Assembly (NCBI GenBank): GCA_001914695.1
Contig: MNCZ01000044.1
Coordinates: forward strand, 1 to 52,705
Reading direction: 5' to 3'
Source of the DNA: Gammaproteobacteria bacterium 13_2_20CM_66_19
Lineage (GTDB): Bacteria; Pseudomonadota; Gammaproteobacteria; Steroidobacterales; Steroidobacteraceae
DNA length: 52,705 nt
Under the pieces are notes generated by a model. That model saw only the letters and a list, made by a program, of their open reading frames with translations. It had not been told where the DNA came from and ran no database searches. A program made the position numbers and the translations under genes. Positions 10,474 to 49,349 of the stretch are shown piece after piece. Numbering within the stretch: the stretch's first letter is position 1; every line of letters starts with the position of its first letter.

Positions 10474-10566
10474 CCGGTTCAAGCGGAGCCCGAGAATAAG
10501 AGCGCACCCCCCCTGGGTCAACGAGCGTTCCACTTAATCTGGCCGCCCGGCTGTCACCAAGGGGGG

Positions 10567-10607
10567 CCGTCTCGGCATCGACCGGGACCGGCCCGATGTC
10601 GAGACGG
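10567..10607 (-). terminator. Long stem-loop directly after the DmpA-like gene
   Basis: CCGTCTCGGCATCG (10567-10580) pairs with CGATGTCGAGACGG (10594-10607), 13 of 14 bases, around a 13-nt GC-rich loop. It begins immediately after the stop codon of the minus-strand peptidase gene (10608-10610). There is no clear U-tract on the minus strand, so a classical Rho-independent terminator is not certain. An RNA-stabilising 3' hairpin is also possible. Confidence 0.5.
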
Positions 10608-11822
10608 TCAGTGCGCCAGGCGGTTGTACCGCGCCAGTACAGCTCGCAGCTGCTCGTGCGGAAGCGCCCGGACATGATGGCCGTCGATGCCCGTCATGTC
10701 CTCCGCGGCCACCATGGCGTTAACGACGGCTTCCTCGGTGGCCTGCACGGTCGCGGCGAAGAGCGGATCCATGGAGTCGTTCGGCACCATCCTGAGGTCG
10801 ACCACGTGGCCGACGTCGCTCGCCGCGGCGTTCGCGGTCGAGAAAGCAATGAAGATGTCGCCGGAGCCGTTGCCGGCAATGCTGCCGGTCCGCCCGATGC
10901 CGAGCGACACGCGCCGCGCGATGCGCTTCAGCTGGTGCGGCAGGAGCGGCGCATTGGTGGCCACGACCACGATGATCGAGCCGCGCTCGCTGGCTTCGGA
11001 CGGCAGGAAGGCGTAAGGGTCCTCGGACTCGATCTCCCGGCCGACCGGAATACCCGCGATCCTGAGGTTCTGACGCCGACCGTAGTTGCATTGCACGAGC
11101 ACCCCGACGAGGTAGCCACCGTCCTTCTCCGCGACCTTGCGGGAAGAAGTCCCGATGCCGCCCTTGAAGCCGTTGCAGATCATGCCGGTGCCGCCGCCGA
11201 CCGAGCCTTCCTCCACCACTCCGGAGTGCGCGCTGTCGAGCGCGCGCAGCGCATGCTCCGGCCTCACGTGAAATCCGTTGATGTCGTTGAGCCAGCCGTC
11301 CCAGGTCTCGGCGACGACCGGCAGCGACCACCAGGCGCCGGTGGCGTCCGCCGCGCCGTGCGCCACGCGCCAGGCGATGACCGCATCGCGCACCACACCG
11401 ACGCTGTGGGTGTTGGTGATCATCACCGGTCCCTCGAGGAAGCCGGATTCCTCCACCCACGTGGTGCCGGTCATCTCGCCGTTGCCGTTCTGAGAGTGCC
11501 AGCCGGCGAAAGAGAAGCGCTGCATGGAGGCAAATCCACGCGGCAGCACGGCCGTCACACCGGTGCGGACCGGTCCCTTGCCGACGACGAGCTTGCCGCT
11601 GCCCGCGACGAGAGTCGTATGACCGACGAGCACGCCGTCGACATCGGTGATCGCATTGAGCGGCCCCGGCGTGCCGTCGAAGGGCACGCCGAGGTCACGG
11701 GCGCGCGGACGCGGCTTCGCAGCGGCCGCAGCCGGATCCGCCGCGGTCGCGCTCGCCGCTGATAGCGCGAGCGCAAGGAGGGCGGTGATGGCGACGGGCC
11801 GACGCAGCATGAGGCAGCGCAT
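10608..11822 (-). CDS. DmpA/BapA-type self-processing aminopeptidase (family S58), exported
   Basis: This 404-residue precursor has a signal peptide (about 1-28, ending ASATA). DmpA-family enzymes are Ntn-like hydrolases that cleave themselves before a serine, which becomes the N-terminal nucleophile of the beta chain; they remove N-terminal D- or beta-amino acids from peptides. Family blocks present are NAITDVDGVLVGHTT, MITNTHSVG, GSVGGGTGMICNGFKGG and VGVLVQCNYG. The likely cut is Gly281-Ser282 in ERGSIIVVVATNAPLLP. After signal removal this is near residue 254, close to Ser250 of DmpA. Specificity cannot be read. It is monocistronic, followed by a hairpin. Confidence 0.9.
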   Translation of the reverse strand: MRCLMLRRPVAITALLALALSAASATAADPAAAAAKPRPRARDLGVPFDGTPGPLNAITDVDGVLVGHTTLVAGSGKLVVGKGPVRTGVTAVLPRGFASMQRFSFAGWHSQNGNGEMTGTTWVEESGFLEGPVMITNTHSVGVVRDAVIAWRVAHGAADATGAWWSLPVVAETWDGWLNDINGFHVRPEHALRALDSAHSGVVEEGSVGGGTGMICNGFKGGIGTSSRKVAEKDGGYLVGVLVQCNYGRRQNLRIAGIPVGREIESEDPYAFLPSEASERGSIIVVVATNAPLLPHQLKRIARRVSLGIGRTGSIAGNGSGDIFIAFSTANAAASDVGHVVDLRMVPNDSMDPLFAATVQATEEAVVNAMVAAEDMTGIDGHHVRALPHEQLRAVLARYNRLAH

Positions 11823-11957
11823 CGCATCATGAAGGCGGTCGGAGATGCAACTTTTTCCTCCGCCTCATCTGGAGTACTCTCGAGTCGGGGAGCTTCGGCG
11901 GCTCGCTCTTTGCCACGCCGGACGTCATAACAACCAACTCACCGGGAGGGGCAGCTC

Positions 11958-12515
11958 ATGGAGACCATCAAAGGACATCTGGCGTCCATCCTCGCGCGTC
12001 GCTGGTGGCTGCTGCTTCTGCGCGGCCTGATTGCGATCGCATTCGGAGTCGTGAGCTGGGTCCAGCCCGGCATCTCGCTCGCCTCGCTGGTGCTGCTCTT
12101 TGGCGCTTACTCGCTCGTGGATGGAGTGCTCAACGCCTGGGCGGCCCTCGAGGGGAGGCGTGAGCACGAGCACTGGTGGGTGCTGTTCCTCGAGGGATTG
12201 CTCGGAATCGGCGTCGGCGTGCTGACCTTCCTGGCTCCGGCGATCACCGCACTCGCACTCCTCTTCTATATTGCGGTCTGGGCAATCGCCACGGGAGTTC
12301 TCGAGATTGTGGCGGCGATCCGCCTGCGCAAGGAGATCGAAAATGAGTGGATGCTGATCATCGCGGGCCTGGCCTCCGTGGTGTTCGGCACTCTGCTCAT
12401 GGCGCAGCCGGCAGCGGGTGCGCTCGCCCTGCTCTGGCTGATCGCGTCCTACGCCATTTTCTTCGGCGTGCTGCTCGTGGTCCTCGCGTTCAGGGTGCGC
12501 AGCTTCGCGGCCTGA
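11958..12515 (+). CDS. HdeD-family (DUF308) membrane protein
   Basis: This 185-residue protein has six predicted membrane helices in three pairs, the layout of HdeD/DUF308 proteins. Recognisable stretches are WWLLLLRGLIAIAFGVVSW, LVLLFGAYSLVDGVLNAWAA and IAVWAIATGVLEIVAAIRLR. E. coli HdeD is linked to acid resistance at high cell density, but the family has no defined activity. The ATG follows GGGAGGGGCAGCTC, a strong ribosome site. It stands alone between the divergent peptidase gene and the phosphoesterase gene. Confidence 0.88.
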   Translation: METIKGHLASILARRWWLLLLRGLIAIAFGVVSWVQPGISLASLVLLFGAYSLVDGVLNAWAALEGRREHEHWWVLFLEGLLGIGVGVLTFLAPAITALALLFYIAVWAIATGVLEIVAAIRLRKEIENEWMLIIAGLASVVFGTLLMAQPAAGALALLWLIASYAIFFGVLLVVLAFRVRSFAA

Positions 12516-12736
12516 AGGCAAGGCTGACGCTCGTTCGGATCGGCGGTGGGTGCGCGCTATGCCTGCGGCCAAGTAGTTGACCCAACTTAGAATTTTCCCG
12601 GACGCGGCGTCCTGTCATCGGCCCGCCTTAGGCTCGTCGAGGGCTCGTGCCCGCTCGCGGGCCTCGCACCCGCAAAGCCTGGCGTGCGATCTTTGAGGTC
12701 GACTTCAAATGGGCCGAAGGACCCGAGGGCCGCGCG

Positions 12737-13738
12737 ATGGATCGGGCAGCATCAAGGCTGGTCTCCTTATTTTTGGGCATGTTGCTGCTCGCGACGCAGG
12801 GAAGCGCGGGCGCCGCATCGGGCGATGAGCCGCCCCGATTCGAGGTGGCGGCACCGGTGACCGGGGCTCCCCTCACCTTCGTCGTCTACGGCGACACGCG
12901 CTTCAGCCGGCGCGAGCAGGTCGTGAACGCGCCCGCGCGGCGCGCACTCGTCAGGCGGATCGCGCGCGAGAACCCGGCCGCGATCCTGATCGGCGGGGAC
13001 CTCGTTTACGAAGGCACCGATCCGGACGACTACGCGACCTACGAGAGCGAGACCCTCGAGTGGGCGAAGCAGAAGATCCCGGTGTTTCCCGCGCTCGGCA
13101 ATCACGAGTTCACGGGATGCACCCGCGGCGAGGCAGCCCCGTGCCTCGAGAACTGGTGGAAAGCGTTCGGCGCATTGGCCTTGCGGCCGTACCGGTGGTA
13201 CTCGGTGAGCCTCGGCCCCACGCTCCTCGCGTTGATTCTGGATTCGGACTCGCCGCTCAGGCCGGGCAGCGAACAGCGGGAGTGGCTCGAGCGGCAACTC
13301 ACCCATGCCGACCCGCGCGTCAGGTTCATATTGATTGCGTTGCACTATCCTCCGGTCAGGGACCCTTTCTATCCGAGGATGAAGGATGAGAGGGAGATCG
13401 AGCGGTACCTCTCGAAGCACGCCGCGACGCTGCGCCCCCAGGTCGTCGTCGTCGGCAGTCACGTCCACAACTACGAGCGCTACTTCCGGGACGGCGTCAC
13501 TTACCTCGTGAGCGGCGGCGGGGGCGCGCAGCCCGTGCCGGCCGCGCGCATGTTCGGAGAGCTCTCGAAGCTGACCACCTCGGTGAACTTCCACTATCTG
13601 CGCTTCACTCTCGAGGCTGATCGACTGACCGGAACCATGGTCCGCTTCGATGCCGAGGATCGAAGCGGGAACCCCTGGAGCGAACCGGATCGCTTCGAGA
13701 TCCGAGCCAGGAGCTCCGCGCCGGCCGCGTCGAGGTGA
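12737..13738 (+). CDS. Exported calcineurin-like metallophosphoesterase
   Basis: This 333-residue protein has a signal peptide (about 1-26, ending QGSAGA). The binuclear metal-site motifs are in order: GDTRF (Asp53), GGDLVYEG (from 86), GNHE (121-124), ALHYPP, and GSHVHNYER near the C-terminus. This arrangement resembles the purple acid phosphatase-like branch, although the tyrosine ligand of true purple enzymes cannot be confirmed. It probably hydrolyses phosphoesters in the periplasm. The ATG at 12737 places the signal peptide correctly. It converges with the CHAT gene, leaving one base between the two stop codons. Confidence 0.88.
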   Translation: MDRAASRLVSLFLGMLLLATQGSAGAASGDEPPRFEVAAPVTGAPLTFVVYGDTRFSRREQVVNAPARRALVRRIARENPAAILIGGDLVYEGTDPDDYATYESETLEWAKQKIPVFPALGNHEFTGCTRGEAAPCLENWWKAFGALALRPYRWYSVSLGPTLLALILDSDSPLRPGSEQREWLERQLTHADPRVRFILIALHYPPVRDPFYPRMKDEREIERYLSKHAATLRPQVVVVGSHVHNYERYFRDGVTYLVSGGGGAQPVPAARMFGELSKLTTSVNFHYLRFTLEADRLTGTMVRFDAEDRSGNPWSEPDRFEIRARSSAPAASR

Positions 13739-13739
13739 C

Positions 13740-16700
13740 TCAATCCGCCAGGCGCCGCCACTTCCCGTGTGGATCACTGACCCAGGATCCGGTGTCTTTG
13801 AGCTCGCCCTTCTCGTCGTAGCGATTCAGCAGCAGCACGGGCGCTCCGCGCTCGCGGGACAGGGGGAGCGACATCTCGGCGGTGAACAACAGCCAGGTCT
13901 TGTAGCTGCTGGCCCGGCACACCCAGACGCGCCCCTGCTGCGAGGCCTCAGCCACGGCCTTCTGCAGCGGTAACGGCAGTGCGGCAGGGTCGCGAATCTG
14001 ATAGGAGTCCTTCGGCGAGAGCTGCCGGTCCGAGATGAGACCGTCCAGCAGCCTCTCTACCCGAGCAGGCGCCTGAATGGCGCGCAACCGCCGTGTCTCC
14101 AACTCCGCTCCCTCGTGTGCCGTTGCAGGTCCCCGACTCGCTACGCCGCGGGCCGGTGGCCCCGGCCCGAGCGCGACGACCGACACCTGGTAAGCGGCCC
14201 AAAGCGCCGGATCCGCCGCCCCGCTCGACACCACCGATCGCATGGCCGCGCCAAGCGCCGCCGCCGGGCTCATGGAGTCCCGCAGCAGGTGTCGATAGAA
14301 CTCTGTCATGAGACGCGCGCCAATCTCATCGGAGACCGGCCAAAGCGAGGCCACGACCGCTCGCGCACCGCGGGCGAGCATCGTGGAGCCGATGCCGAGC
14401 AGGCCTTCGCTCGGCACCTGCTTGCCGAGGGCCGTGTCGCACGCGCTCAACACTGCGACGTCCGCCGCGAGTGACTCGAGCGACAGGTCGGCCACGCGCA
14501 CCGCACCGTCCACGACCCTTCCGCTGCTGTCGTAGGAGCTGAGAATCAGGGCGGATAACTGCGGAACCTGCGCATCCACGATCCCGTGGGTCGCAATGTG
14601 GATGAATCGGTACGCTGACCAGTCGAGCGACAGGAGCCGGTCGCGCGTGGCGTCGAGTCCGATGAGCCGATCCACATCCGCAGGCGGGAACTGCGCCGAG
14701 ATCTGCGCGGCCTCCTGAGCCGTGAAGGGGAGACGCTGGTACTGGCCACGATCTGGATCCAGCGAGTGCCTGGCTGGGGGCTGTGAGGTGGCGGACGTTC
14801 TCATGACCACCGCGAGCCGCGGGTCGTCCGGCTGGTACACGGGATCGGCCACGAGCAACAGTGCCCGGCGGGCGCGCGACCTGACCCGCGCCCCGCTGGT
14901 ATCGAGCATCCACGCGGCGGGCGCGAGGGCGACATCGTGACGCGTCGCAACAAACGAGTCTGCTTTCGGGTCCGGCATCGCGAGTGCCGCAAACGGAACG
15001 TAGTCGAGGGCCCCGTCCGGAATGACGACCCATTGCCGCGCGCCCGACAGCCACGGCTCAATCGGCCGAATGATCATCTCGTACAGGGCCTGAGCGTCGT
15101 GCAGTCGACGCTCGAGGGGGACGTCGACGAGGCGCGTCAGCGAATGGTGGAAAGCGACGGCCTGGTCCGCAACGGCCACGGGTGAGGGCAAGCGCGTCCA
15201 GTGAATTGCCCTCGGCAACACCACCCACGCGTAGGCGGATTCGGACCCGAGCCAATAGGACACGAGCGCCGTATCAGCGGGAAGAGACGGCAGACTCGCT
15301 CGTCCGGTGCCCGCCCGGCGGGCGGTCCCGGCGGACACGGCCCGGCTTGCGATCACGGTATTCACCGCGTCCGCCTGACGCTCGAGCTCCGCAATGTCAC
15401 TCATCAAGTGCCTGGCGTGCGGGTCATCGGAGCCGGAGCGGTCGACCCGGGCGTCGAGAGCAAACTGACGGGCGGCAAGCGCCCGATAGAGCGCTTCGCG
15501 GCGCTGAAACTCGGAGGCGAGTGCCCGCCGAACGGCGGGGGCGTACTTCTGCGCCGCGACGTCGCCCAAGGACTGGGCGCGTGAGGCATCGGCGCTCACG
15601 AACGCGGCGGCGGCGATGGCGTCGGCCTCTTTATCCCGGCCGGCCGCGAGCGCCCGCTCGTAGCGCTCGCGGAGCAACTCCAGCTCGAGGTCGTAGGCGG
15701 GCCGCAGCGGGGCTTGCAGTTGTGCGCGCAGCTCGGGATTCGCGCTCTGCAGGCGGACCGCATCCGAGTGTCCCAGGGCGCCCTCGACCGCCGCGAGCGC
15801 CGCGTGAGGTCGCCCGATCATCCGCAGGGCGCGGGCCTGCTCGAGGTCCGCCTCAAACTCCTCCAGGACACCGCCGAGCCTGTGAAGAGGCGGCCGCGCG
15901 GCCGCCAGGTCCGCGAGCGCCTCGCGCGGCCGGCCCATCTCACGCAGCAGCACCGCGCGTTGCAGCAGGGCTTCCGCGCGAATGAGCGAATCGGCTTTGG
16001 CGCGCGTCGAGATGACTTCATCGAGCTGCGCCCTGGCCTCCGTGAGGCGGCCGGCGGCGGCCGTGTGGGCGGCCAGCTGAACTTTGATGCGCGCGGCCGC
16101 TGACGGCGCGACAGCGAGGCGGAGCGCCTCCCGATCGAAGGCGATGGCGCTCTCCACCCTCCCCTGTTCCGCATCGATGTTCGCGAGCGCCCGCAGAGTG
16201 GCCATGCGTCCGCGGCCGTCGAGCGCCACGGTGCGGATCGAGAGCGAGCGGTCGAGAAACTCGCGCGCGCGAACCCGGTCGCCGAGCGCGTAGTAGTTCA
16301 CGCCGATTCCATAGAGACTCTGCCCTTCATCCCTCTGGGCTTGAACCTCCTGCGCGAACGCCAGCGCGCGATCGAACAGACGCAGCGACGTATCGAAACG
16401 ACCGACGGCGTAGTTTGCCAGCGCCGTGTTATTGACCACGGCGAGGTACAGTTTGGGATAGGGCTGTTCGGGGATATCCTTGCGCGCCCGATCGAACCGG
16501 CGCAGCGCCTCCGGCAGACGCCCGAGGCCCCACAGGCACAGCGCCTGGTTCTGCCACGCCAGGGCACGGCGGAGCGTCTCGTCGATCGCTTCGAACAATT
16601 GACTTGCGCTCTGCGAAGCGGTCACACATTGCGGGTAGCGACCCTCATGGAGATAAGTCAGCGCAATGTTCGTCAGTTGCAACCCCGCGTCATACCGCTC

Positions 16701-41080: not shown

Positions 41081-42049
41081 GTGGATCCCTTATCAGATGT
41101 CCTGCGATCGGTGCGCCTGACCGGCGCTTTTTTCTTCGACGTTCAGGCGGGGGAGCCCTGGGTCGCGGAGACACCTCGCGGCGAGTCCATAGTCGGGGCG
41201 ATGTTCCCGGGCTCGGAGCACCTGATCTCATACCACCTGATTCTCGAGGGAGGGTGCTGGATTTGCCTGGAGGGTGAGCCGGCTCTGCGGCTCGTTACGG
41301 GAGACATCGTCGTGCTGCCGCATGGCGACACGCATACGCTCTCGAGTGCACCCGGCCTTCGTCGCACGCCCGAGATGCAAATGTACCGGCGGCCCGATGA
41401 CCGTCACCTGCCGGTATCCATTGCGGTCGGAGATGACGTCGGGAACGGAGCGCGCTTCGTTTGCGGCTTCGTCGCCTGTGACGCGCGCCCGTACAATCCG
41501 CTGCTCTCCGCGCTACCGCGGATGTTCCGGCTGGGCGATCACGTCAGCGGTTCGTTGGGCGCCTACTTCCAGGCCGCGCTCGCGGAAACCAAGGACTCGC
41601 GCCTCGGGGGCGCCGGGATCCTGCACCGGCTCAGCGAACTCATGTTCGTGGACGCCGTGCGGCGCTACCTCGAAGGATTGCCCGCCGGTCACAGCACGTG
41701 GCTCTCCGGCCTGCGCGATCCATACGTCGGGCGGGCGCTCGCCTCGCTTCATCGCGAGCCCGGCCGCTCATGGACGATCGAATCGCTCGCCCGCCAAGTT
41801 GCGCTCTCCCGGTCGGCGCTCGCGGAGCGCTTCGGCCATTTTGTCGGCCAACCGCCCATGCAGTACCTGACGAACTGGCGGATGCAACTTGCAGCAAACG
41901 AACTGCGCGCTGGCACTGACAGCATTGCCGTGATAGGGCATCGCGTCGGCTACGAGTCCGAGGCCGCCTTCAGCCGTGCCTTCAAGAAAGCGGTCGGGGT
42001 TCCCCCGAGCGCCTGGCGCGCCTCGTTGACGAGCGGTGAAAACTGGTAG
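41081..42049 (+). CDS. AraC-family transcriptional regulator with cupin sensor
   Basis: This 322-residue protein has an N-terminal cupin (ISYHLILEGGCWICLEGEPA, VTGDIVVLPHGDTHTL) and a C-terminal AraC double HTH (WTIESLARQVALSRSALAER, GQPPMQYLTNWRMQLAANEL, AVIGHRVGYESEAAFSRAFK). The group (cupin_6 AraC) often regulates neighbouring oxidoreductases or efflux genes. The start is GTG at 41081. The divergent GFA gene is the closest candidate target; the B12 operon downstream has its own riboswitch and is not likely to depend on this regulator. Confidence 0.93.
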   Translation: MDPLSDVLRSVRLTGAFFFDVQAGEPWVAETPRGESIVGAMFPGSEHLISYHLILEGGCWICLEGEPALRLVTGDIVVLPHGDTHTLSSAPGLRRTPEMQMYRRPDDRHLPVSIAVGDDVGNGARFVCGFVACDARPYNPLLSALPRMFRLGDHVSGSLGAYFQAALAETKDSRLGGAGILHRLSELMFVDAVRRYLEGLPAGHSTWLSGLRDPYVGRALASLHREPGRSWTIESLARQVALSRSALAERFGHFVGQPPMQYLTNWRMQLAANELRAGTDSIAVIGHRVGYESEAAFSRAFKKAVGVPPSAWRASLTSGENW

Positions 42050-42063
42050 ATGCTAAAGGCGCG

Positions 42064-42252
42064 TTCAGGTGCTCGTCCGGCATGGCATGCCGGCGAGTGA
42101 AACGGGAAGCCGGTGAGCCCCTCGGGGCAATTCCGGCACTGCCCCCGCAACGGTAGGTGAGCAAAGTCGAGTCAGTTTGCCACTGTGCACGAGCACGGGA
42201 AGGCGACTCGACGGGAAACCCCTCTCACGAGTCCGTAGACCGGCCTGCGACG
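42064..42252 (+). promoter_or_regulatory. Cobalamin riboswitch upstream of the B12 operon
   Basis: Conserved cobalamin-aptamer elements appear in order: GGGAAGCCGGTGAG (42104-42117), ATTCCGGCACTGCCCCCGCA and CAACGGTA (the B12 box core), GCCACTG followed by GGGAAGGCG, and GAGTCCGTAGACCGGCCTGC at the 3' end. It begins just after the AraC stop and ends about 130 nt before btuB. In Gram-negative btuB leaders this aptamer commonly represses translation when adenosylcobalamin binds. Confidence 0.95.
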
Positions 42253-42354
42253 TGGCGGCACGTGTTGCGGCGGGCAACGGCGATGCGGATCGGTCTCTCT
42301 TCCCTCTGACCCTTCCGTACCGGCTCCTACCCAACCGGGTCATTTCAGACTGCG

Positions 42355-42373
42355 CATGCACGGTGGGTGCATG
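42355..42373 (+). promoter_or_regulatory. Hairpin next to btuB ribosome site, candidate expression platform
   Basis: CATGCAC (42355-42361) and GTGCATG (42367-42373) form a perfect 7-bp stem with a GGTGG loop. It directly abuts the likely Shine-Dalgarno GGGGGTAGG (42373-42381) of btuB. It may help hide or expose the ribosome site in response to the upstream riboswitch. This is inferred from position; no U-tract is present, so transcription termination is less likely. Confidence 0.5.
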
Positions 42374-42384
42374 GGGGTAGGCCT

Positions 42385-44274
42385 GTGGACTTTCACGTCT
42401 ATCGCGCGCCCGGCTGGCAGCGCTCGGGTCTCGGTCTGCTGCTCGCCGGTTTCAACGTGACGGCGCTCGCGCAGGGCGACTCCAAGCTCGGGTCGGGCAC
42501 GGTCGTCATCACGGCCACCCGCACGCCGGAGCTCGCCGAGGAGACCCTCTCGGCGGTCACCGTCATCGATTCGCGGGAGATCGCCAGACGCCAGGTGCTG
42601 TCGCTCGAGGAGCTCTTCCAGGGCGAGGCCGGGATTCAGATCAACAACAACGGGGGCCTCGGCAAAGTCTCATCCGTTTATCTCCGTGGCACAGAGGCCG
42701 AGGAAGTGCTCGTGCTGGTGGACGGGATCCGAATGGGATCGGTGAGCCTGGGCACCACGGCCTTTCAGTACCTCCCCGTCGATCAGATCGATCATGTCGA
42801 GATCGTGCGCGGACCCCGTTCGAGCATGTACGGCTCCGAGGCCATCGGAGGCGTCATCCAGATCTTCACGCGCCGTCCAGCGGATGGATTCCGTTCCGAA
42901 GCGAACGCTGCGACCGGAAGCCATTCGACGCAGAGCTACGCCGGCGCGCTTTCAGGCCAGGCAGCCCGGCTGGGCTACAGCGTTTCGGCGAGCTATCTCG
43001 GCAGCGATGGCTACCCGAACTGCCGCGGCGTCCCCTATCCACCCGGCGGCGGCTGCTATGTGCTCGACCCGACGCCCGACGGCTATCACAACGCATCGGA
43101 ATCGGCGCGCCTCAGGTATGAGCTCTCCGATGAGGCGGACGTTGAGGCCTCGGCGCTCCGCGCGCAGGGCCAAACTCGTTACGCGGGACTTGCGAGCAAT
43201 CACGAGGACTTCCTCCAGCAGGCCGCATCCGTCGGCGCACACTGGTCGCCCGCCGCCACGCTGAGACTCACGGCTCTGGTCGGTCAATCGCGGGATGAGG
43301 CGCAGGAAAGCCTCAATCTCGTGATCACGCCCGGCTCGCGCTTCGACACCACGCGCGACAGCGCGTCGGTGCAAGCCGACTGGCAACTCGCCGCCCGGCA
43401 GCTTCTCAGTCTGGGCTCCGATTATCTTCGCGACCAACTCTCGAGTGATACCCCGTTTCCGGTCACTGCGCGCCGGATCGTCGGCGCTTTCGGCATCTAT
43501 CAGGGAGCGCTCGGGCGGCAGCAGTGGTCAGTCAGCGCGCGCCACGATCGAAATCAGCAGTTCGGGGAGCGCTCGACCGGCAGCCTCGCCTGGGGCTTCC
43601 GCTTCGACCGGGGGCCGAAGCTCCTGGTCTCGTACGGGAGCGCGTTTCGAGCGCCGAGCTTCGACGATCTCTACTTCCCGGGCTTCGGGAATCCGGCACT
43701 GCGTCCGGAGACCTCGCGCACGGCCGAAGTCGGTCTCGAGCAGCGCTTTGCCGCCAGCGCCTGGTCGCTGCACGCGTTCGATACACGCGTGCACGAACTG
43801 ATCGGCTTCGATTCGAACTTCATTGCCGCCAACACGGACGAGGCGCGCATCCGCGGCGTCGAGGCTGAGGGCGCGAGGACGCTCGGCGCCTGGCATGCGG
43901 CCTACACCCTGGGCTGGCTCGATCCCCGCAACCGCACACCAGGCTCTCCCAACTACGGCAACCTCCTGCCGGGACGCGCGCAGGCAACCGCACGCCTCGA
44001 GTTGGCGCACGAGAGCGCCCGGCTACTCATCGCCGGGCGGGTGAACGTGGCGGGCCCGCGCTTCGATGATCTCGCCAACGCAGCGCCGCTCGGGGGCTAC
44101 AGCACCGTCGACCTCCTCGTCGAATGGCGTCCCACGCGCCGCTTGAGCGTGCAGGCCAAGGCCGCAAACCTCACCGACCGCCGGTACGAGCTCACCTTGT
44201 ACTACCCGCAGGATCGTCGCAATTACCTGCTGACCGTCCGCTACCACGGTATCGCGCCCGGAGACACCCCATGA
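42385..44274 (+). CDS. btuB: TonB-dependent vitamin B12 receptor
   Basis: This 629-residue outer-membrane receptor has a signal segment ending ALAQ, a TonB box region GTVVITATRTPE, the plug (LEELFQGEAGIQINNNGGLG, SVYLRGTEAEEVLVLVDGIR, IVRGPRSSMYGSEAIGGVIQ) and a barrel ending NYLLTVRYHGIAP. Overall length and plug match BtuB. Control by a cobalamin riboswitch makes B12 (or cobinamide) the confident substrate. I chose GTG at 42385 because GGGGG lies 7 nt upstream; GTG at 42367 would fall inside the leader hairpin. Its stop overlaps the next ATG (ATGA). Confidence 0.94.
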   Translation: MDFHVYRAPGWQRSGLGLLLAGFNVTALAQGDSKLGSGTVVITATRTPELAEETLSAVTVIDSREIARRQVLSLEELFQGEAGIQINNNGGLGKVSSVYLRGTEAEEVLVLVDGIRMGSVSLGTTAFQYLPVDQIDHVEIVRGPRSSMYGSEAIGGVIQIFTRRPADGFRSEANAATGSHSTQSYAGALSGQAARLGYSVSASYLGSDGYPNCRGVPYPPGGGCYVLDPTPDGYHNASESARLRYELSDEADVEASALRAQGQTRYAGLASNHEDFLQQAASVGAHWSPAATLRLTALVGQSRDEAQESLNLVITPGSRFDTTRDSASVQADWQLAARQLLSLGSDYLRDQLSSDTPFPVTARRIVGAFGIYQGALGRQQWSVSARHDRNQQFGERSTGSLAWGFRFDRGPKLLVSYGSAFRAPSFDDLYFPGFGNPALRPETSRTAEVGLEQRFAASAWSLHAFDTRVHELIGFDSNFIAANTDEARIRGVEAEGARTLGAWHAAYTLGWLDPRNRTPGSPNYGNLLPGRAQATARLELAHESARLLIAGRVNVAGPRFDDLANAAPLGGYSTVDLLVEWRPTRRLSVQAKAANLTDRRYELTLYYPQDRRNYLLTVRYHGIAPGDTP

Positions 44275-44897
44275 ACACCGGAACTCATCTCAACAACCTG
44301 ATGCTCAGGCCGCTGAGCGCGGCCGCCGATAGCCGCTTTCTGAATCGCCGCGACGCCCTGGGCGCGCTCGGACTCGTCTGGGCGATGGTGCTCACGCGGG
44401 CCGGCCAGAGCGGTTCACACCCGCTCCCGGACGCCTCTGTTGCCGTCTTCTTTCTCCTCGGCTTCTTCAACCGATCCGCTCTCTGGCTCCCGATTGCCTT
44501 AGGTTTCGCAGCCGCCGTCGATGCCTGGGTGGTCACGGGCGATATCACTGCCTACTGCACGACGCCCGCCTCCCTCTTTCTCATTCCGACCTACGCGACG
44601 GTGTGGCTCGCCGGGCGCTTCGCGCGCAAGCGCCGCCCAACCGCAGTCCTGACTACCGCCGGGATAGCCGCAGGGGCGGCGTTTCTCATATCGAGCGGGA
44701 GCTTCTATTTTCTCTCCGGTCAATTCCCCGACCTGCCTCTCGCCGAATACTCGCGCCAGGTGCTGATCCGCTATCTCCCGCCCTACGTCGCGCACTGCCT
44801 CCTGTACGTCGCGGCGGCCGTGGTGGTCTCGCACGCTGCCAGGTGGCTGCGCCCCGCCGCAGTGACCCGCCGGCGCGAACCCGCGGCACACGCCTGA
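44271..44897 (+). CDS. btuM: BtuM-like inner-membrane cobalamin transporter
   Basis: This 208-residue protein has about six hydrophobic segments (ALGALGLVWAMVLTRAG, ASVAVFFLLGFFNRSALWLP, FLIPTYATVWLAG, TAGIAAGAAFLISSGSFYFL, VAHCLLYVAAAVVVSHAARW). After an Asp-containing helix (AAVDAWVV) it has DITAYCTTPASLF, with Cys96 placed like the conserved cobalt-binding cysteine of BtuM, a solitary ECF S-component-like B12 transporter described from Thiobacillus denitrificans. ATGA overlap with btuB couples translation. No BtuCDF genes are nearby, so this is the probable inner-membrane route. The assignment rests on motif and context; an unrelated membrane protein is the alternative. Confidence 0.75.
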   Translation: MNTGTHLNNLMLRPLSAAADSRFLNRRDALGALGLVWAMVLTRAGQSGSHPLPDASVAVFFLLGFFNRSALWLPIALGFAAAVDAWVVTGDITAYCTTPASLFLIPTYATVWLAGRFARKRRPTAVLTTAGIAAGAAFLISSGSFYFLSGQFPDLPLAEYSRQVLIRYLPPYVAHCLLYVAAAVVVSHAARWLRPAAVTRRREPAAHA

Positions 44898-44914
44898 CGC
44901 GCAGCACGAAGCCG

Positions 44915-45439
44915 ATGACTCGCCGCACGCTCATACTCGGGGGCGTTCGCTCGGGAAAGAGCCTCTACGCGGAGAGTCTCGCCCGCGCGGACGGGCGAGA
45001 GGTCACGGTGGTCGCGACCGCGACGGCCGGCGATGCCGAGATGGCCGCGCGGATTGCGGCGCACCGCGCTCGTCGCCCCCCGGCCTGGTCGGTCATTGAA
45101 ACGCCCGTCCGCCTGGCGGAGACGCTGCGGCAGACCTGCCGCCCGGAGCGGGTCGTGATCGTCGACTGCCTGACCCTCTGGATCAGCAATCTCCTCTCTG
45201 CCGATGACGAGGCGCTCGCGGACCGCGAGACGCAGGCGCTGTGCGCGAGGCTCCCGGAGCTGCCCGGCGGCCTGATTCTCGTGAGCAACGAGACCTCCCT
45301 CGGCATCGTGCCCGTCGGCGCGCTCACCCGGCGCTACCTCGACTGCGCCGGCGCGCTGCACCGTCGGGTCGCTGCCGAAATGGACCGGGTGGTTCTGCTC
45401 GTCGCGGGACTGCCCCTCACGCTCAAGGGATCGTCATGA
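44915..45439 (+). CDS. cobU: Bifunctional adenosylcobinamide kinase / cobinamide-phosphate guanylyltransferase
   Basis: This 174-residue cytoplasmic P-loop enzyme phosphorylates adenosylcobinamide and then transfers GMP to give AdoCbi-GDP. The P-loop is GGVRSGKS (9-16). His50 in RIAAHRARRP matches the region of the guanylylated histidine in Salmonella CobU. VDCLTLWISNLL (Walker B-like) and LVSNETSLGIVP are diagnostic. It starts 17 nt after btuM, and its stop overlaps the cobT start (ATGA). Length is normal for the family. Confidence 0.96.
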   Translation: MTRRTLILGGVRSGKSLYAESLARADGREVTVVATATAGDAEMAARIAAHRARRPPAWSVIETPVRLAETLRQTCRPERVVIVDCLTLWISNLLSADDEALADRETQALCARLPELPGGLILVSNETSLGIVPVGALTRRYLDCAGALHRRVAAEMDRVVLLVAGLPLTLKGSS

Positions 45440-46473
45440 CCGCTACTATCGTTCCCGCCGACGGCGCAAGCCGCGCGCTCGCGCTCGAGCGGCTCGACTC
45501 CCTCGCCAAGCCTCTCGGCTCCCTGGGGCGACTCGAGGCACTGGCTGCCCAGCTCTGCGCGATCCAGGGGACCGTCTCTGCGCGCCTGTCGGCTCCGCAC
45601 GCGCTGGTGTTCGCCGGCGATCACGGCATCGCGCGTCGTGGCGTGAGCGCCTACCCGCCGGAGGTGACCGCCCAGATGGTCGCGAATTTCGTGCGGGGCG
45701 GAGCCGCAATCAGCGTCCTGGCACGGCGCGAGGGGTTCTCGCTCACGGTAGTCGATGCCGGCGTCGATGCGCACATCGCGCCGGATCCGCGCCTGATCGA
45801 TGCCAAGGTGCGCCGCGGGACGAGTGACTTCGGCTTCGAGTCGGCCATGACGCCCGCCGAATGCCGTGAGGCGCTGGCGCGCGCCGAGCGCATCGTGGAT
45901 GGGATCGCCGCCCGAGGATGCAACACGTTGGTCCTGGGCGAGATGGGTATCGGCAACACGGCGTCCGCTGCGGTGCTGATGCATGGACTCACGGGGCTGG
46001 CGCTCCCGGACTGCGTGGGTCGCGGCACGGGCCTGGACGATCGGGGCCTGGCGCGCAAGGTCGAGCTGCTCAGCGCGGCTTGCGCCCGATGCGCACCGCC
46101 CGGCGAGCCCCTTGACCTGCTGACGGAATTCGGCGGCTACGAGATCGCGATGCTGGTCGGCGCGGCGCGCGCGGCGGCGCGGGCGCGGATGGTCGTTCTG
46201 GTGGACGGGTTCACCGTCACCGTGGCGGTGCTGCTCGCGTCCCGCATGGCGCCCGAGCTCCTCGACTACTGCGTTTTCGGTCACTGCTCGGCGGAACGGG
46301 CGCATCGCGCCTTGCTCCAGATCATGCAGGTGCAGCCCGTCCTGGACCTCGACATGCGTCTCGGGGAAGGGAGCGGTGCGGCCCTCGCACTCTGCGTGCT
46401 GCGCGCGGCGCTCGCGCTCTACTCCGATATGGCGACGTTCGAGCAGGCGGGCGTGAGCGAGCGCAGCGCATGA
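45436..46473 (+). CDS. cobT: Nicotinate-nucleotide-dimethylbenzimidazole phosphoribosyltransferase
   Basis: This 345-residue enzyme activates the lower-ligand base to its alpha-ribotide. Recognisable stretches are LDSLAKPLGSLGRLEALAAQ, VFAGDHGIARRGVSAYPPEV, LGEMGIGNTASAAVLM and GRGTGLDDRG. RLGEGSGAALAL contains Glu311, the counterpart of the catalytic Glu of Salmonella CobT. The ATG overlaps the cobU stop; the stop overlaps the next ATG. Together with CobU and CobS it assembles the nucleotide loop. The base accepted (5,6-dimethylbenzimidazole or another) cannot be read. Confidence 0.96.
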   Translation: MTATIVPADGASRALALERLDSLAKPLGSLGRLEALAAQLCAIQGTVSARLSAPHALVFAGDHGIARRGVSAYPPEVTAQMVANFVRGGAAISVLARREGFSLTVVDAGVDAHIAPDPRLIDAKVRRGTSDFGFESAMTPAECREALARAERIVDGIAARGCNTLVLGEMGIGNTASAAVLMHGLTGLALPDCVGRGTGLDDRGLARKVELLSAACARCAPPGEPLDLLTEFGGYEIAMLVGAARAAARARMVVLVDGFTVTVAVLLASRMAPELLDYCVFGHCSAERAHRALLQIMQVQPVLDLDMRLGEGSGAALALCVLRAALALYSDMATFEQAGVSERSA

Positions 46474-47153
46474 GCACCGCCAACCTCCCAGCGCTCTGTT
46501 CCTGGAGCGGAGGCAAGGACTCCTGTCTCGCCTTGCACCTGGCCCTCGAGTCAGGAATCCCCGTGACGCGTCTCCTCACGGTGTTCGAGCCGGACGCCGA
46601 TCGCAGCCGCTCGCACGCCCTGCCACTCGAGCTGCTGGCCGATCAAGCCGCCGCGCTCGGACTCGAGCTGCGCTCGCCACGGGCCGATTGGGCGACCTAC
46701 GAGCGCGTGTTCGTCGAGGAGCTCGAGCACGCCCGCGAGGCCGGGATCGGACAGGCAATCTTCGGCGACATCGACCTGTTGCCGCATCGCGAATGGGAAG
46801 AGAAGGTCTGCCGGCGGGCGGGCCTCGCGGTCCATCTGCCGCTCTGGAACTGGGCCCGCGAGCGTGTCGTCGCGGAGATTCTCGCCCGCGGAATGAAGGC
46901 GATCTGCGTGTGCATCAATACCCGCTTCCTTCCCGAGGAGTTTTGCGGCCGGGCGTACGATGAGACGTTCATTCGCGATCTGCCGGGCGGAGTGGACGCC
47001 TGCGGTGAGAACGGCGAGTTCCACACGTTCGTCACGCACGCCCCGAGGTTCACCCGACCGGTCGACGTCAGGATGAGGACACGTCGCCGCTACGTCGGCC
47101 CGGCCGAGTACGGCAGCGAGGTCTACTGGTTTGCAGACCTCGAGCGCGCCTGA
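46470..47153 (+). CDS. DUF71/Dph6-like ATP pyrophosphatase, B12-salvage group
   Basis: This 227-residue protein of the adenine-nucleotide alpha-hydrolase (PP-loop) fold has LCSWSGGKDSCLALHLAL (PP-loop at 13-18), GDIDLLPHREWEEKVCRRAG, and CGENGEFHTFVTHAP, typical of DUF71/COG2102. In eukaryotes and archaea the family makes diphthamide (Dph6). Bacteria lack diphthamide, and comparative genomics has predicted a bacterial subgroup in B12 salvage. Its location between cobT and cobS, with ATGA overlap to cobT, supports that. It could activate a carboxylate for amidation of a corrinoid, which is inference; the reaction is not established. Confidence 0.88.
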   Translation: MSTANLPALCSWSGGKDSCLALHLALESGIPVTRLLTVFEPDADRSRSHALPLELLADQAAALGLELRSPRADWATYERVFVEELEHAREAGIGQAIFGDIDLLPHREWEEKVCRRAGLAVHLPLWNWARERVVAEILARGMKAICVCINTRFLPEEFCGRAYDETFIRDLPGGVDACGENGEFHTFVTHAPRFTRPVDVRMRTRRRYVGPAEYGSEVYWFADLERA

Positions 47154-47154
47154 C

Positions 47155-47946
47155 ATGGAGGCGGCATTCGAAGCGCTGCGCGGAGCTCTCGGCCGGGAGA
47201 GGCTCCGCCTGCTTGCAGCGGTTCAATACTTCACGCGCTTGCGGGTCCCGGGTCGCACCGGCCATGCGCAAGAGACTCTCGAAGGAGCCATCCGTTACCT
47301 GCCCGTGGTCGGCGCCTTCGTCGGAGCCGCCGGGGCGGCGATCTACCTGTTGGTACGCGCCGTGCTTCCCGCAGGCGTTGCAGTCGCGCTCAGCATGGCC
47401 GCCACGGTGATCATCACGGGGGCCTTGCACGAGGATGGCCTCGCGGATGCCGCCGACGGACTCGGAGGAGGATTGAGCCGCGAGCGCGTACTCGCGATCA
47501 TGAAGGACCCGCACGTCGGAGCCTTCGGCGCAACGAGCCTGATGCTCGCGCTCCTCCTGAAGTTCAACCTCCTGCTCGCCGTGCCGACGAGCCGGATTCC
47601 CGCGATGCTGATCGCCGGTCATGCATTAAGCCGGCTCGCCGCCGTCGGGGTCCTGATGACGCTCCCGTACGTCCGGGACGAGGAGCGCTCACGCGCGAAG
47701 CCGCTGGTCACCGCCACCTCGGGCGCCTCGCTCGTTGTCGCGGTCGTCACAGGCCTTGCCCCTCTCGCTCTCGTGGGAAAGCCAGCCCTCACGGGCGCGG
47801 GCTGCGTCGTGGTGGCGAGCCTTGTCTGGCGCGCCTACCTGCAAGGTCGATTAGGCGGTTACTCGGGAGACTGCCTCGGCGCCGCCCAGCAACTCAGCGA
47901 GATCGCGTTCTACGTGGGAGCCGACGCGTCGGCCTTTCCGCACTAG
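47155..47946 (+). CDS. cobS: Cobalamin synthase (adenosylcobinamide-GDP ribazoletransferase)
   Basis: This 263-residue integral membrane enzyme joins AdoCbi-GDP and alpha-ribazole(-phosphate) to make cobalamin(-phosphate). The family signature LHEDGLADAADGLGGG (from 91, with metal-binding Asp residues) is intact, then ERVLAIMKDPHVGAFGATSL. LLAAVQYFTRLRVPG at the start and GGYSGDCLGAAQQLSEIAFY near the end are typical. It is the last gene of the operon, starting one base after the DUF71 stop. No CobC phosphatase or BtuR adenosyltransferase follows; these must be elsewhere or missing. Confidence 0.96.
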   Translation: MEAAFEALRGALGRERLRLLAAVQYFTRLRVPGRTGHAQETLEGAIRYLPVVGAFVGAAGAAIYLLVRAVLPAGVAVALSMAATVIITGALHEDGLADAADGLGGGLSRERVLAIMKDPHVGAFGATSLMLALLLKFNLLLAVPTSRIPAMLIAGHALSRLAAVGVLMTLPYVRDEERSRAKPLVTATSGASLVVAVVTGLAPLALVGKPALTGAGCVVVASLVWRAYLQGRLGGYSGDCLGAAQQLSEIAFYVGADASAFPH

Positions 47947-47978
47947 CGGTACCAGCAGGCAACATCGGGTGGACAGCG

Positions 47979-49349
47979 TCACTTCCGCCGGCGTCGGAAA
48001 AGCACGTACGCGAGCAGCGTGACGCCGATCGAAATGGTGCTGGTCCAAACTTCCGCGCGGTGCGAGGGCGTCAGCGCCATCGCGATCAGCACCAGCACCA
48101 TCGCCGCGATCGCCAGGTAGCTCAGCCACGGAAACAGCCACATCGGCAGCGCCGGCGCGGGTCCGCCGGCCCTTTCCCGCGCGCGTCGCGACCGCACCTG
48201 CGACACGGCGATCGCGAGATAAATCACCGCAATGATCGCTCCGGAGGCATTCACGAGGAAGGCAAAGACCACGCTCGGCGAGAGGATCGCGGCGATCACG
48301 CCCGCGAATCCCACCGCGCCCGCGAGCAGCACCGCCCGCGCGGGCACCTGGCGGCGGTTGGTCCGCACCAGCCAGCGCGGCGCATCGCCACGACTGGCGA
48401 GGACGAACAGCACGCGCGAAGCGACGTAGAAAGCCGAATTGAGGCACGACAGCACGGCAGTGAGGATCACCGCCGCCATGAACTCACTTGCGTACGGGAA
48501 GTGGATCTCGTCCAGCGCCAGGGTGAACGGCGACTGACCGGCCACCACACGGTTCCACGGAACCGTGGACACGATCACGAAGACCGAGCCGACGTAGAAC
48601 ATCAAAATGCGGCTGATGATGGTCGAGGTCATCCTCGCCACAGCGCGTGCGGGCTCGGGCGACTCCGCCGCGGCGATCGTGACCACCTCGGAGCCCATCA
48701 TGGACCAGATGACCGTGACCACGGAGGCCAGCACCGCAAACGCCCCCTGCGGCGCAAACCCGCCGTGAGCGACGAGATTCGAGAACGTCGGCCCGCTCGG
48801 AGACCGATAGCCGCAGGCGTAGGCGCCGACGAAGACGATGAAGGAGATGATGGCCGCTACCTTGATGGACGAAAACCAGAATTCGAACTCGCCGTAGGCG
48901 CGCACCGACATGAGATTCACCCACGTCATGAGCGCCATCAGCGCCAGTCCGACCTCCCACCGCGGCAACGGCAGCCAGTGCTCGATGATCCCGGCTCCGG
49001 CGATCGCCTCGACCGGGATCACGACCACCCAGAAGTACCAGTAGAGCCAGCCGACCGAGAATCCGGCCCAGTTGCCGAGCGCCGCCCGGGTGAACTCCGT
49101 GAACGAGCGCACCTGCGGCATGTCGACGGCCATCTCGCCGAGCATGCGCATGATCAGCAGCACGAGCGAGCCCGTGAGCGCGTAGGTGATGACGATTGCG
49201 GGCCCTGCGGCGGTGATGGCCACGCTGCTGCCGACGAAGAGCCCGGCGCCGATGATGCCGCCGATGGTGATCATCGCGACGTGGCGCGGCCGCAGCGACC
49301 GGCTGAGCGCGTTCCCGTCAGTCTGAGCCGCTGCCACTGCTTCGTTCAT
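47979..49349 (-). CDS. APC-superfamily amino acid permease
   Basis: This 456-residue inner-membrane transporter has twelve predicted helices. The first contains ITIGGIIGAGLFVGSSVAIT, the substrate-binding GxG of the amino acid transporter (AAT) family, and VRSFTEFTRAALGNWAGFSV, TVIWSMMGSEVVTIAAAESP and VLSCLNSAFYVASRVLFVLA are family stretches. It resembles GabP/AroP/LysP-type symporters; the amino acid is not predictable. It converges with cobS (32 nt between stops) and is unrelated to the B12 operon. Confidence 0.94.
   Translation of the reverse strand: MNEAVAAAQTDGNALSRSLRPRHVAMITIGGIIGAGLFVGSSVAITAAGPAIVITYALTGSLVLLIMRMLGEMAVDMPQVRSFTEFTRAALGNWAGFSVGWLYWYFWVVVIPVEAIAGAGIIEHWLPLPRWEVGLALMALMTWVNLMSVRAYGEFEFWFSSIKVAAIISFIVFVGAYACGYRSPSGPTFSNLVAHGGFAPQGAFAVLASVVTVIWSMMGSEVVTIAAAESPEPARAVARMTSTIISRILMFYVGSVFVIVSTVPWNRVVAGQSPFTLALDEIHFPYASEFMAAVILTAVLSCLNSAFYVASRVLFVLASRGDAPRWLVRTNRRQVPARAVLLAGAVGFAGVIAAILSPSVVFAFLVNASGAIIAVIYLAIAVSQVRSRRARERAGGPAPALPMWLFPWLSYLAIAAMVLVLIAMALTPSHRAEVWTSTISIGVTLLAYVLFRRRRK

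What the first reader, a model, noticed from the sequence alone, without database searches (positions are those of the whole stretch)
42064..47946. Riboswitch-controlled B12 salvage operon built around BtuM and DUF71
One transcript appears to carry outer-membrane uptake (BtuB), a BtuM-like inner-membrane step, and nucleotide-loop assembly (CobU, CobT, CobS) plus a DUF71 ATP pyrophosphatase. Overlaps of 4 nt link btuB-btuM, cobU-cobT and cobT-DUF71, and one base separates DUF71 from cobS. No BtuCDF, CobC, BtuR or corrin-ring gene is present. The gene set implies import and remodelling of B12 or cobinamide by a bacterium that does not make the corrin ring.
Basis: partly seen in the sequence, partly recalled or inferred. 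Interest (0 to 1): 0.75.

Follow-up and report, generated by a model that had tools for sequence, protein, structure and literature searches.

The report
Vitamin B12 salvage operon with DUF71
A bacterium that seems unable to build vitamin B12 carries one B12-sensing switch and six genes to import and finish B12; one of them, an enzyme of unknown job called DUF71, is also found with B12 uptake genes in some bacteria where the genes its proposed job would need were not found.

Summary
In detail: a cobalamin riboswitch (42050-42263) precedes btuB-btuM-cobU-cobT-DUF71-cobS with the overlaps given. BtuM keeps the cobalt-binding cysteine; DUF71 has the ENGEFH motif of the published DUF71-B12 subgroup.

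In this 82.6%-complete draft genome CbiC, CbiB and BtuR gave no hit, so salvage is likely. But a BtuC-type permease, an ABC ATPase and a BtuF-like protein lie on other contigs, and a PduO adenosyltransferase can do BtuR's step.

The operon is a known kind in a new arrangement. The useful result concerns DUF71, whose proposed role (CbiZ substitute, making cobyric acid) needs CbiB. No CbiB hit in 20 of 27 chosen DUF71 genomes. In a relative with no CbiB, CobS or CbiC hit, DUF71 overlaps btuB behind a riboswitch. Against this, DUF71's nearest betaproteobacterial relatives show no B12 linkage. I think DUF71 acts on imported corrinoids; amide repair is a guess.

The parts
42050..42263 (+). Cobalamin riboswitch aptamer (RF00174)
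   Evidence: Rfam, 103.8 bits, E 5.8e-25, full model
42326..42381 (+). Predicted hairpin: CCUACCC (42326-42332) pairs with GGGUAGG (42375-42381), which would mask the btuB ribosome-binding site; possible translational expression platform
   Evidence: Fold of 42264-42402, MFE -56 kcal/mol, z -1.46, 13 of 200 shuffles as stable: weak support
42385..44274 (+). btuB, TonB-dependent cobalamin receptor (GTG start at 42385 behind GGGGGTAGG; GTG at 42367 is the alternative)
   Evidence: TIGR01779 TonB-B12 497.7 bits, below its cut-off of 599.7; Plug and barrel
44271..44897 (+). btuM, small inner-membrane cobalamin transporter, 208 aa, Cys96 aligned to Cys80 of T. denitrificans BtuM
   Evidence: phmmer to 8c7p E 2.5e-20; alignment; Cys position
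44915..45439 (+). cobU, cobinamide kinase / cobinamide-phosphate guanylyltransferase
   Evidence: PF02283 E 8.2e-54; NCBIfam NF004469 over cut-off
45436..46473 (+). cobT, nicotinate-nucleotide--DMB phosphoribosyltransferase
   Evidence: PF02277 E 1.5e-124; TIGR03160 over cut-off
46470..47153 (+). DUF71 (COG2102, Diphthami_syn_2 family) ATP pyrophosphatase, 227 aa, PP-loop SGGKD at 13, ENGEFH at 180
47155..47946 (+). cobS, adenosylcobinamide-GDP ribazoletransferase
   Evidence: PF02654 E 3.2e-50; best NCBIfam NF001277 265.7 bits against a cut-off of 273

Best explanation
This is a riboswitch-controlled cobamide/cobinamide salvage operon of a bacterium that probably does not make the corrin ring. 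BtuB brings the corrinoid through the outer membrane; BtuM (and possibly a separate BtuCDF-like transporter encoded elsewhere) brings it through the inner membrane, BtuM stripping the upper ligand with its cysteine; a PduO enzyme encoded on another contig adenosylates it; CobU and CobT/CobS attach a new nucleotide loop when the import is cobinamide. AdoCbl closes the riboswitch, probably by hiding the btuB ribosome-binding site. DUF71 is an ATP-using adenylating enzyme of the N-type PP-loop fold that acts on the imported corrinoid itself, independently of CbiB and of nucleotide-loop assembly; the chemistry I think most likely is ATP-dependent amide formation on a corrin carboxylate (side-chain repair or similar). 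Shown: gene content, order, overlaps, riboswitch match, families, predicted fold, no CbiB/CbiC/BtuR hit in the draft genome, presence of PduO. Inferred: transcription as one unit, transport route, riboswitch direction, DUF71 substrate and chemistry (about 0.3 for action on whole corrinoids, less for amide repair in particular).
Against: G000 is 82.6% complete, so every absence there is soft; CobC, CbiZ and B12-dependent enzymes were not searched. Completeness of the genomes reached through L loci is not told, and several are MAGs. The genome sets were chosen by me, not drawn at random: the 14 loci with cobS beside DUF71 were left out, and two loci with cbiB beside DUF71 (L051, L057) were not. 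CbiB was not searched in the genomes of L049 and L061. In the window's nearest DUF71 relatives (proteobacterial loci L008-L023) 0 of 16 had recognised B12 genes (TonB-receptor matches under 100 bits and general ABC matches not counted; several flanks are cut by contig ends) and 0 of the 10 scanned had a cobalamin riboswitch, so this branch may do something not tied to B12. The ENGEF/YH motif does not separate B12-linked from unlinked members. DUF71 and CobS are not associated within the family (2 of 7 against 8 of 53, Fisher p 0.33). Nothing here shows the substrate.
Confidence: 0.65

Rival explanations
1. DUF71 is a stand-in for bacterial CbiZ: it cleaves pseudo-B12-type cobamides to adenosylcobyric acid, which CbiB then rebuilds (the 2012 published proposal), so the operon is a remodelling operon.
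For: Published phylogenetic profile: strict anti-correlation of DUF71-B12 and CbiZ in bacteria, 75 of 102 DUF71 next to transport genes and 18 of 102 next to cbiB (PMC3541065, passages). Seven of 27 DUF71 genomes searched do have a CbiB-family hit over the cut-off, and three of 80 DUF71 loci carry cbiB on the fetched stretch (L051, L053, L057).
Against: No CbiB hit in G000 nor in 20 of 27 DUF71 genomes; no CobS hit in 25 of 49. Riboswitch-btuB-DUF71 in G022, with no CbiB, CobS or CbiC hit. Cleavage to cobyric acid would be a dead end there.
Confidence: 0.12
2. DUF71 in this proteobacterial branch has no specific B12 role; it is a general PP-loop enzyme that was inserted into the salvage operon (between cobT and cobS) and is carried along.
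For: 16 of 16 proteobacterial neighbour loci L008-L023 have no recognised B12 genes; no riboswitch in the 10 scanned; DUF71 is not beside btu/cob genes in G002, G005, G003, G044 and G033 by the HMMs used (TonB-receptor matches of 80-89 bits and general ABC matches in G003 and G044 not counted, and in G033 a BtuF-type gene lies 5.7 kb away); G050 and G033 have btuB-cobU-cobT-cobS without it on the fetched contigs.
Against: Two operons of different make-up in this branch, the window and G022, put DUF71 behind a riboswitch and btuB, and 23 of 80 wider loci have B12-type genes on the fetched stretch.
Confidence: 0.2
3. BtuM is the sole inner-membrane B12 importer of this organism and the BtuC/BtuF-like proteins carry siderophore or haem instead.
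For: BtuC-, BtuD- and BtuF-like proteins lie on two contigs and all are below NCBIfam cut-offs; no riboswitch on the C28 stretch or at L176; Peripla_BP_2 proteins are common (8 of 8 genomes searched); 4 of 9 BtuM genomes of the family have no FecCD permease over the cut-off.
Against: BtuC is the best NCBIfam match of the permease; permease, ATPase and PduO lie near each other in G000, G054, G022 and G002, and in G036 and G053 they lie with btuB, btuM and btuF on one stretch.
Confidence: 0.35
4. DUF71 replaces CbiB: it ligates aminopropanol (phosphate) to adenosylcobyric acid, so that the operon can salvage cobyric acid.
For: It has an ATP-dependent ligase-type fold and no CbiB hit is present.
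Against: Published adjacency of DUF71 to cbiB in 18 of 102 cases; strong CbiB hits (over 250 bits) in 5 of 27 DUF71 genomes; no use in the genomes without a CobS hit that have riboswitch-linked DUF71.
Confidence: 0.05

Closest known systems
DUF71-B12 subgroup of COG2102 (de Crecy-Lagard et al. 2012, PMC3541065)
   Same: PP-loop, ENGEF/YH motif and linkage to B12 genes; same fold as PF0828/PH1257.
   Different: Here it lies inside cobU-cobT-DUF71-cobS with btuM, in a draft genome without a CbiB hit; the paper tied its function to CbiB/CbiZ. The paper's main text does not mention BtuM (0 occurrences).
BtuM of Thiobacillus denitrificans (PMC6072759, PDB 8c7p/8ovv)
   Same: Homologous over residues 29-189; cobalt-ligating cysteine, pocket Asp67 and His28 aligned.
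   Different: Pocket Tyr85 is Ser here, Arg153 not assessed; no adenosyltransferase gene beside it, whereas most BtuM hosts have btuR next door; here cobU follows.
btuB-cobU-cobT-cobS stretches of the same bacterial family (G050 L173, G033 L167) and flavobacterial clusters (L047, L071, L080)
   Same: Same core genes; the Flavobacteria also carry DUF71 within the cluster (cobU-DUF71-cobT-cobS).
   Different: G050 and G033 lack BtuM and DUF71 on those short contigs; the flavobacterial clusters have btuC, btuD, cobC and a weak btuF match, and no BtuM hit.
CbiZ and CbiR cobamide-remodelling enzymes (PMC7733943)
   Same: Known entry points for reusing imported cobamides.
   Different: The product of CbiZ has to be rebuilt from cobyric acid; CbiR is an AP-endonuclease-2 superfamily enzyme giving Cbi-P. 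DUF71 is a PP-loop ATPase unlike CbiR; CbiZ was not compared here.

Membership tests
DUF71-B12 subgroup | PP-loop SGGKD motif and DUF71 domain | tested here: met
   SGGKD at residue 13, PF01902 119.6 bits over the 23.2 cut-off
DUF71-B12 subgroup | ENGEF/YH in place of the Dph6 EGGE/DXE motif | tested here: met
   ENGEFH at 180; H185 invariant in 40 of 40 aligned. The motif also occurs in members with no B12 genes nearby, so it is not specific.
DUF71-B12 subgroup | Gene clustering with B12 salvage genes | tested here: met
   Between cobT and cobS behind a cobalamin riboswitch
DUF71-B12 subgroup | Anti-correlation with CbiZ in bacteria | not tested
   CbiZ was not searched; the 12 genome searches went to other families
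CbiZ-type remodelling function | CbiB present to use the cobyric acid product | tested here: not met
   PF03186: 0 matches in G000; soft, as G000 is 82.6% complete
BtuM | Homology to T. denitrificans BtuM | tested here: met
   E 2.5e-20 to 8c7p over residues 29-189
BtuM | Conserved cobalt-ligating cysteine (Cys80) | tested here: met
   Cys96 aligned with Cys80; one of the 9 family BtuMs (G032) has Ala there
BtuM | Host lacks an ECF module | not tested
   Not searched
BtuM | Usually beside an adenosyltransferase gene (btuR); a frequent, not a defining, feature | tested here: not met
   cobU follows btuM; the PduO gene lies on contig C28
Cobalamin riboswitch RF00174 | Score over gathering threshold, full aptamer | tested here: met
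   103.8 bits against 31.5, model 1-189
De novo corrin synthesis in this genome | Precorrin-8X methylmutase CbiC/CobH | tested here: not met
   PF02570 0 matches in G000, found in 1 of 36 genomes searched, G038 of the same genus; only one ring marker tested, draft genome
BtuCDF | BtuC, BtuD and BtuF over curated NCBIfam cut-offs | tested here: inconclusive
   Homologues of all three present, none over its NCBIfam cut-off

The most novel reading that the evidence does not exclude
DUF71-B12 enzymes are an unrecognised ATP-dependent step that acts on intact imported cobamides, for example re-amidating damaged corrin side chains, expressed with BtuB under the B12 riboswitch even in bacteria that only import finished B12. 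They are not CbiZ substitutes.
Probability: 0.3. Interest if true: 0.75.

Novelty: new variant of a known kind. Interest (0 to 1): 0.5.

Why it matters
The function of DUF71-B12 proteins was proposed in 2012 and listed as unknown in a 2016 table (PMC5041015, passage); the standing proposal ties it to CbiB. Genomes that have DUF71 in riboswitch-btuB operons but gave no CbiB and/or CobS hit narrow the possible reactions to ones on whole imported corrinoids, and they give small, clean test systems (a two-gene operon in G022; Roseivirga sp. E12). The window itself is a compact salvage operon that joins BtuM to nucleotide-loop assembly.

Tried and rejected
BtuM-DUF71 as a conserved pair: rejected; both present in 2 of 60 family genomes and on different contigs in the second (G003: C9 and C11).

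DUF71 as a CobC replacement, because relatives have a cobC-type gene after cobS and the window does not: set aside, since Flavobacteria carry DUF71 and cobC in the same cluster and the fold is a PP-loop ATPase.

DUF6580 of L061 as a BtuM homologue: no meaningful BLASTP similarity. PADLOC scan of DUF71: 0 families. Promoter scan of 41900-48100: 0 sites; terminator-like sites 2 against 2.1 expected. Association of DUF71 with CobS in the family: none (p 0.33).

Literature: searches (open-licence PMC only; one search listed 20 of 697) showed no paper that tests DUF71-B12 function after 2012 or describes a btuM-cob operon with DUF71. Papers seen: PMC3541065, PMC7733943, PMC10378866, PMC8305020, PMC5041015 and PMC8123684 as passages; PMC6072759 as outline, abstract and passages; PMC5481537 as one reference-list passage; the rest as listings with the start of the abstract.

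Rows dropped and choices made: G013 DUF71 (23.9 bits) and the second G044 hit were left out of the 2x2 tables, but G013 is among the 27. One search left out L088 and L023 (overlong reading frames) and L091 (copy of the window). CbiB-family hits of 35-61 bits in 8 family genomes, and G016 below the cut-off, were not counted as CbiB; G061 and G062 (84 and 102 bits) are among the seven of 27. One search took 19 of the 80 DUF71 loci and one search took 49; the 14 loci with cobS on the fetched stretch and 17 others (near copies, short contigs and some left out without a special reason, L014, L034, L055 and L078 among them) were not. In one search cobT was first read out of frame; corrected.
Full report
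What is there. A full-length cobalamin riboswitch aptamer lies at 42050-42263 (+), 103.8 bits. Its match begins at the base right after the stop codon of an AraC-type regulator with a Cupin_6 domain (41081-42049). Six genes follow on the same strand: btuB 42385-44274, btuM 44271-44897, cobU 44915-45439, cobT 45436-46473, DUF71 46470-47153, cobS 47155-47946. An amino-acid permease gene points the other way after cobS (47979-49349, -).

Expression. The btuB start most likely is GTG 42385 behind GGGGGTAGG. In a fold of 42264-42402 CCUACCC (42326-42332) pairs with GGGUAGG (42375-42381) and would hide that site. The fold is only mildly better than shuffles (z -1.46; 13 of 200 as stable), and no terminator-like site was reported there. 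Translational repression by AdoCbl is therefore an inference. One transcript is inferred from the overlaps and short gaps, not shown.

BtuM. The 208-aa protein has no Pfam or NCBIfam match (scanned with a longer upstream frame) but matches the BtuM structure 8c7p at E 2.5e-20. Cys96 aligns with Cys80 of the T. denitrificans protein, the cobalt ligand needed for growth and decyanation (PMC6072759, passages). His28 and Asp67 also align, while Tyr85 is Ser; Arg153 was not assessed. Of the 9 other rows (8 family members and T. denitrificans), 8 keep the cysteine; the G032 protein has Ala.

The rest of the genome. The window is contig C117 of G000, 3,135,672 bases in 136 contigs, 82.62% complete. 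No hit in G000: CbiB (PF03186), BtuR (PF02572), CbiC (PF02570). Found: PduO-type adenosyltransferase at C28:2204-2683 (TIGR00636 over cut-off), FecCD permease at C28:10600-11508 (best NCBIfam match BtuC, 197 bits against 334), an ABC ATPase between them, and a BtuF-like protein at C48:31419-32108 (such proteins were found in 8 of 8 genomes searched). Permease, ATPase and PduO also lie near each other in G054, G022 and G002. In G036 and G053 they lie within 15 kb of btuB, btuM and btuF. Of the 9 BtuM genomes of the family, 5 have a FecCD permease over the cut-off and 4 do not. So BtuM and a BtuCDF-like transporter coexist in some members, and the 'no BtuCDF' premise does not hold for the genome, though the substrate of that transporter is not proven. 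A second cobalamin riboswitch with another btuB lies on C41.

Operon history. In G050 and G033 of the same family a btuB end is followed by cobU, cobT and cobS with neither BtuM nor DUF71 recognised on those short contigs (L173, 3,334 bases; L167, 4,431 bases; G033 has a DUF71 on another contig). The window CobU is 61% and CobT 60% identical to those of G050. The window operon looks like that core with btuM added after btuB and DUF71 between cobT and cobS. BtuM is in 9 of 60 family genomes, DUF71 in 7 strong plus 1 weak, both in G000 and G003 only, and in G003 on different contigs.

Three counts bear on that proposal; the genomes were chosen by me, so they are existence counts, not rates. First, in 36 genomes searched for CbiB, 27 carry DUF71 (8 of the family, one of them weak, and 19 named ones from the 80 loci), and 20 of these 27 have no CbiB-family hit; the seven with a hit are G060-G064, G075 and G077, five of them strong. 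The 10 flavobacterial genomes searched where DUF71 sits in a cob/btu cluster (G065-G074) are among the 20; an eleventh such locus, L078, was not searched. Two loci with cbiB beside DUF71, L051 and L057, were not in the set. Second, CobS was searched in 49 DUF71 genomes and found in 24; 25 gave none. The 14 loci with cobS beside DUF71 had been left out of that call, so over both it is 25 of 63 without. In the family, 2 of 7 strong DUF71 genomes have CobS. Third, in genomes without a CobS hit DUF71 can still sit behind riboswitch and btuB: G022 (riboswitch L121 10446-10231, btuB ending in the ATGA that starts DUF71; no CbiB, CbiC or CobS hit, 96% complete), L084 Roseivirga sp. E12 (riboswitch, binding protein, btuC, btuD, btuB, DUF71; no CbiB or CobS hit), L049 Urechidicola MAG (riboswitch, btuB, two DUF71 genes in tandem), L061 Ferruginibacter MAG (riboswitch, btuB, DUF6580, DUF71). 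CbiB was not searched in the last two. A product that only CbiB and CobS can use would be a dead end in such cells. What is left is a reaction on the imported, complete corrinoid, or no B12 reaction at all.

Results that go against a B12 role. The nearest relatives of the window DUF71 are betaproteobacterial (clade 98/82 with family members; 57.6% identity to Janthinobacterium). None of the 16 loci L008-L023 has recognised B12 genes (TonB-receptor matches under 100 bits and general ABC ATPases not counted), and none of the 10 scanned has a cobalamin riboswitch (single loose B12-box matches in L017 and L019 were not borne out by it). In all, 23 of 80 loci had B12-type genes on the fetched stretch (btuB and btuF counted from 150 bits; L037 rests on btuR and L046 on btuF alone), and 18 of 80 a B12-box match with at most one mismatch (L019 among them; 8 matches, up to 3 mismatches, in 1.3 Mb of shuffled loci). 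So linkage is frequent but far from universal. Many flanks are cut by contig ends. In G033 a BtuF-type gene lies 5.7 kb from DUF71.

How it most likely works. Import by BtuB and BtuM, ligand removal by BtuM, adenosylation by PduO, loop assembly by CobU, CobT and CobS for cobinamide; feedback by AdoCbl on the riboswitch. DUF71 most likely adenylates a carboxylate of the corrinoid and forms an amide, as its relative Dph6 is thought to do on diphthine. I put action on whole corrinoids at about 0.3, a role unrelated to B12 at 0.2 and the CbiZ-like role at 0.12.

Novelty. Every gene is of a known family and the operon is a salvage operon of known kind in a new arrangement. What is new here is the set of genomes that separates DUF71 from CbiB and CobS while keeping it beside riboswitch-btuB. 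The paper searches made showed no later test of DUF71-B12.

Noticed in passing
L120 (G000:C41) 10172-15151: Second cobalamin riboswitch, a second btuB, then a 695-aa protein with a lipoprotein-like start and a PQQ_2 beta-propeller match, then DUF4870; by layout reminiscent of the Bacteroides BtuB-BtuG pair (BtuG fold recalled).
   Followed up: partly
window 41081-42050: The riboswitch match begins at the base right after the stop of an AraC-type regulator with a Cupin_6 domain, so the operon promoter probably lies in or before that gene.
   Followed up: no
L126, L162, L163 (G018, same genus): Riboswitch-btuM-CbiA/CobB-type-btuF, plus cbiB, cobU, cobT, cobS and a cobC-type gene, in a 99% complete genome without a CbiC hit: perhaps a late-steps-only B12 gene set.
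   Followed up: partly
L048, L056, L063, L066, L049: Flavobacteria carry two DUF71 paralogues of different clades around one B12 locus (tandem in L049), suggesting two distinct reactions.
   Followed up: no
L104 (G032) 1462-2013: A BtuM homologue with Ala in place of the cysteine described as invariable.
   Followed up: no
L061 753-4622: Riboswitch-btuB-DUF6580-DUF71: a DUF6580 protein occupies the place of BtuM but shows no sequence similarity to it.
   Followed up: partly
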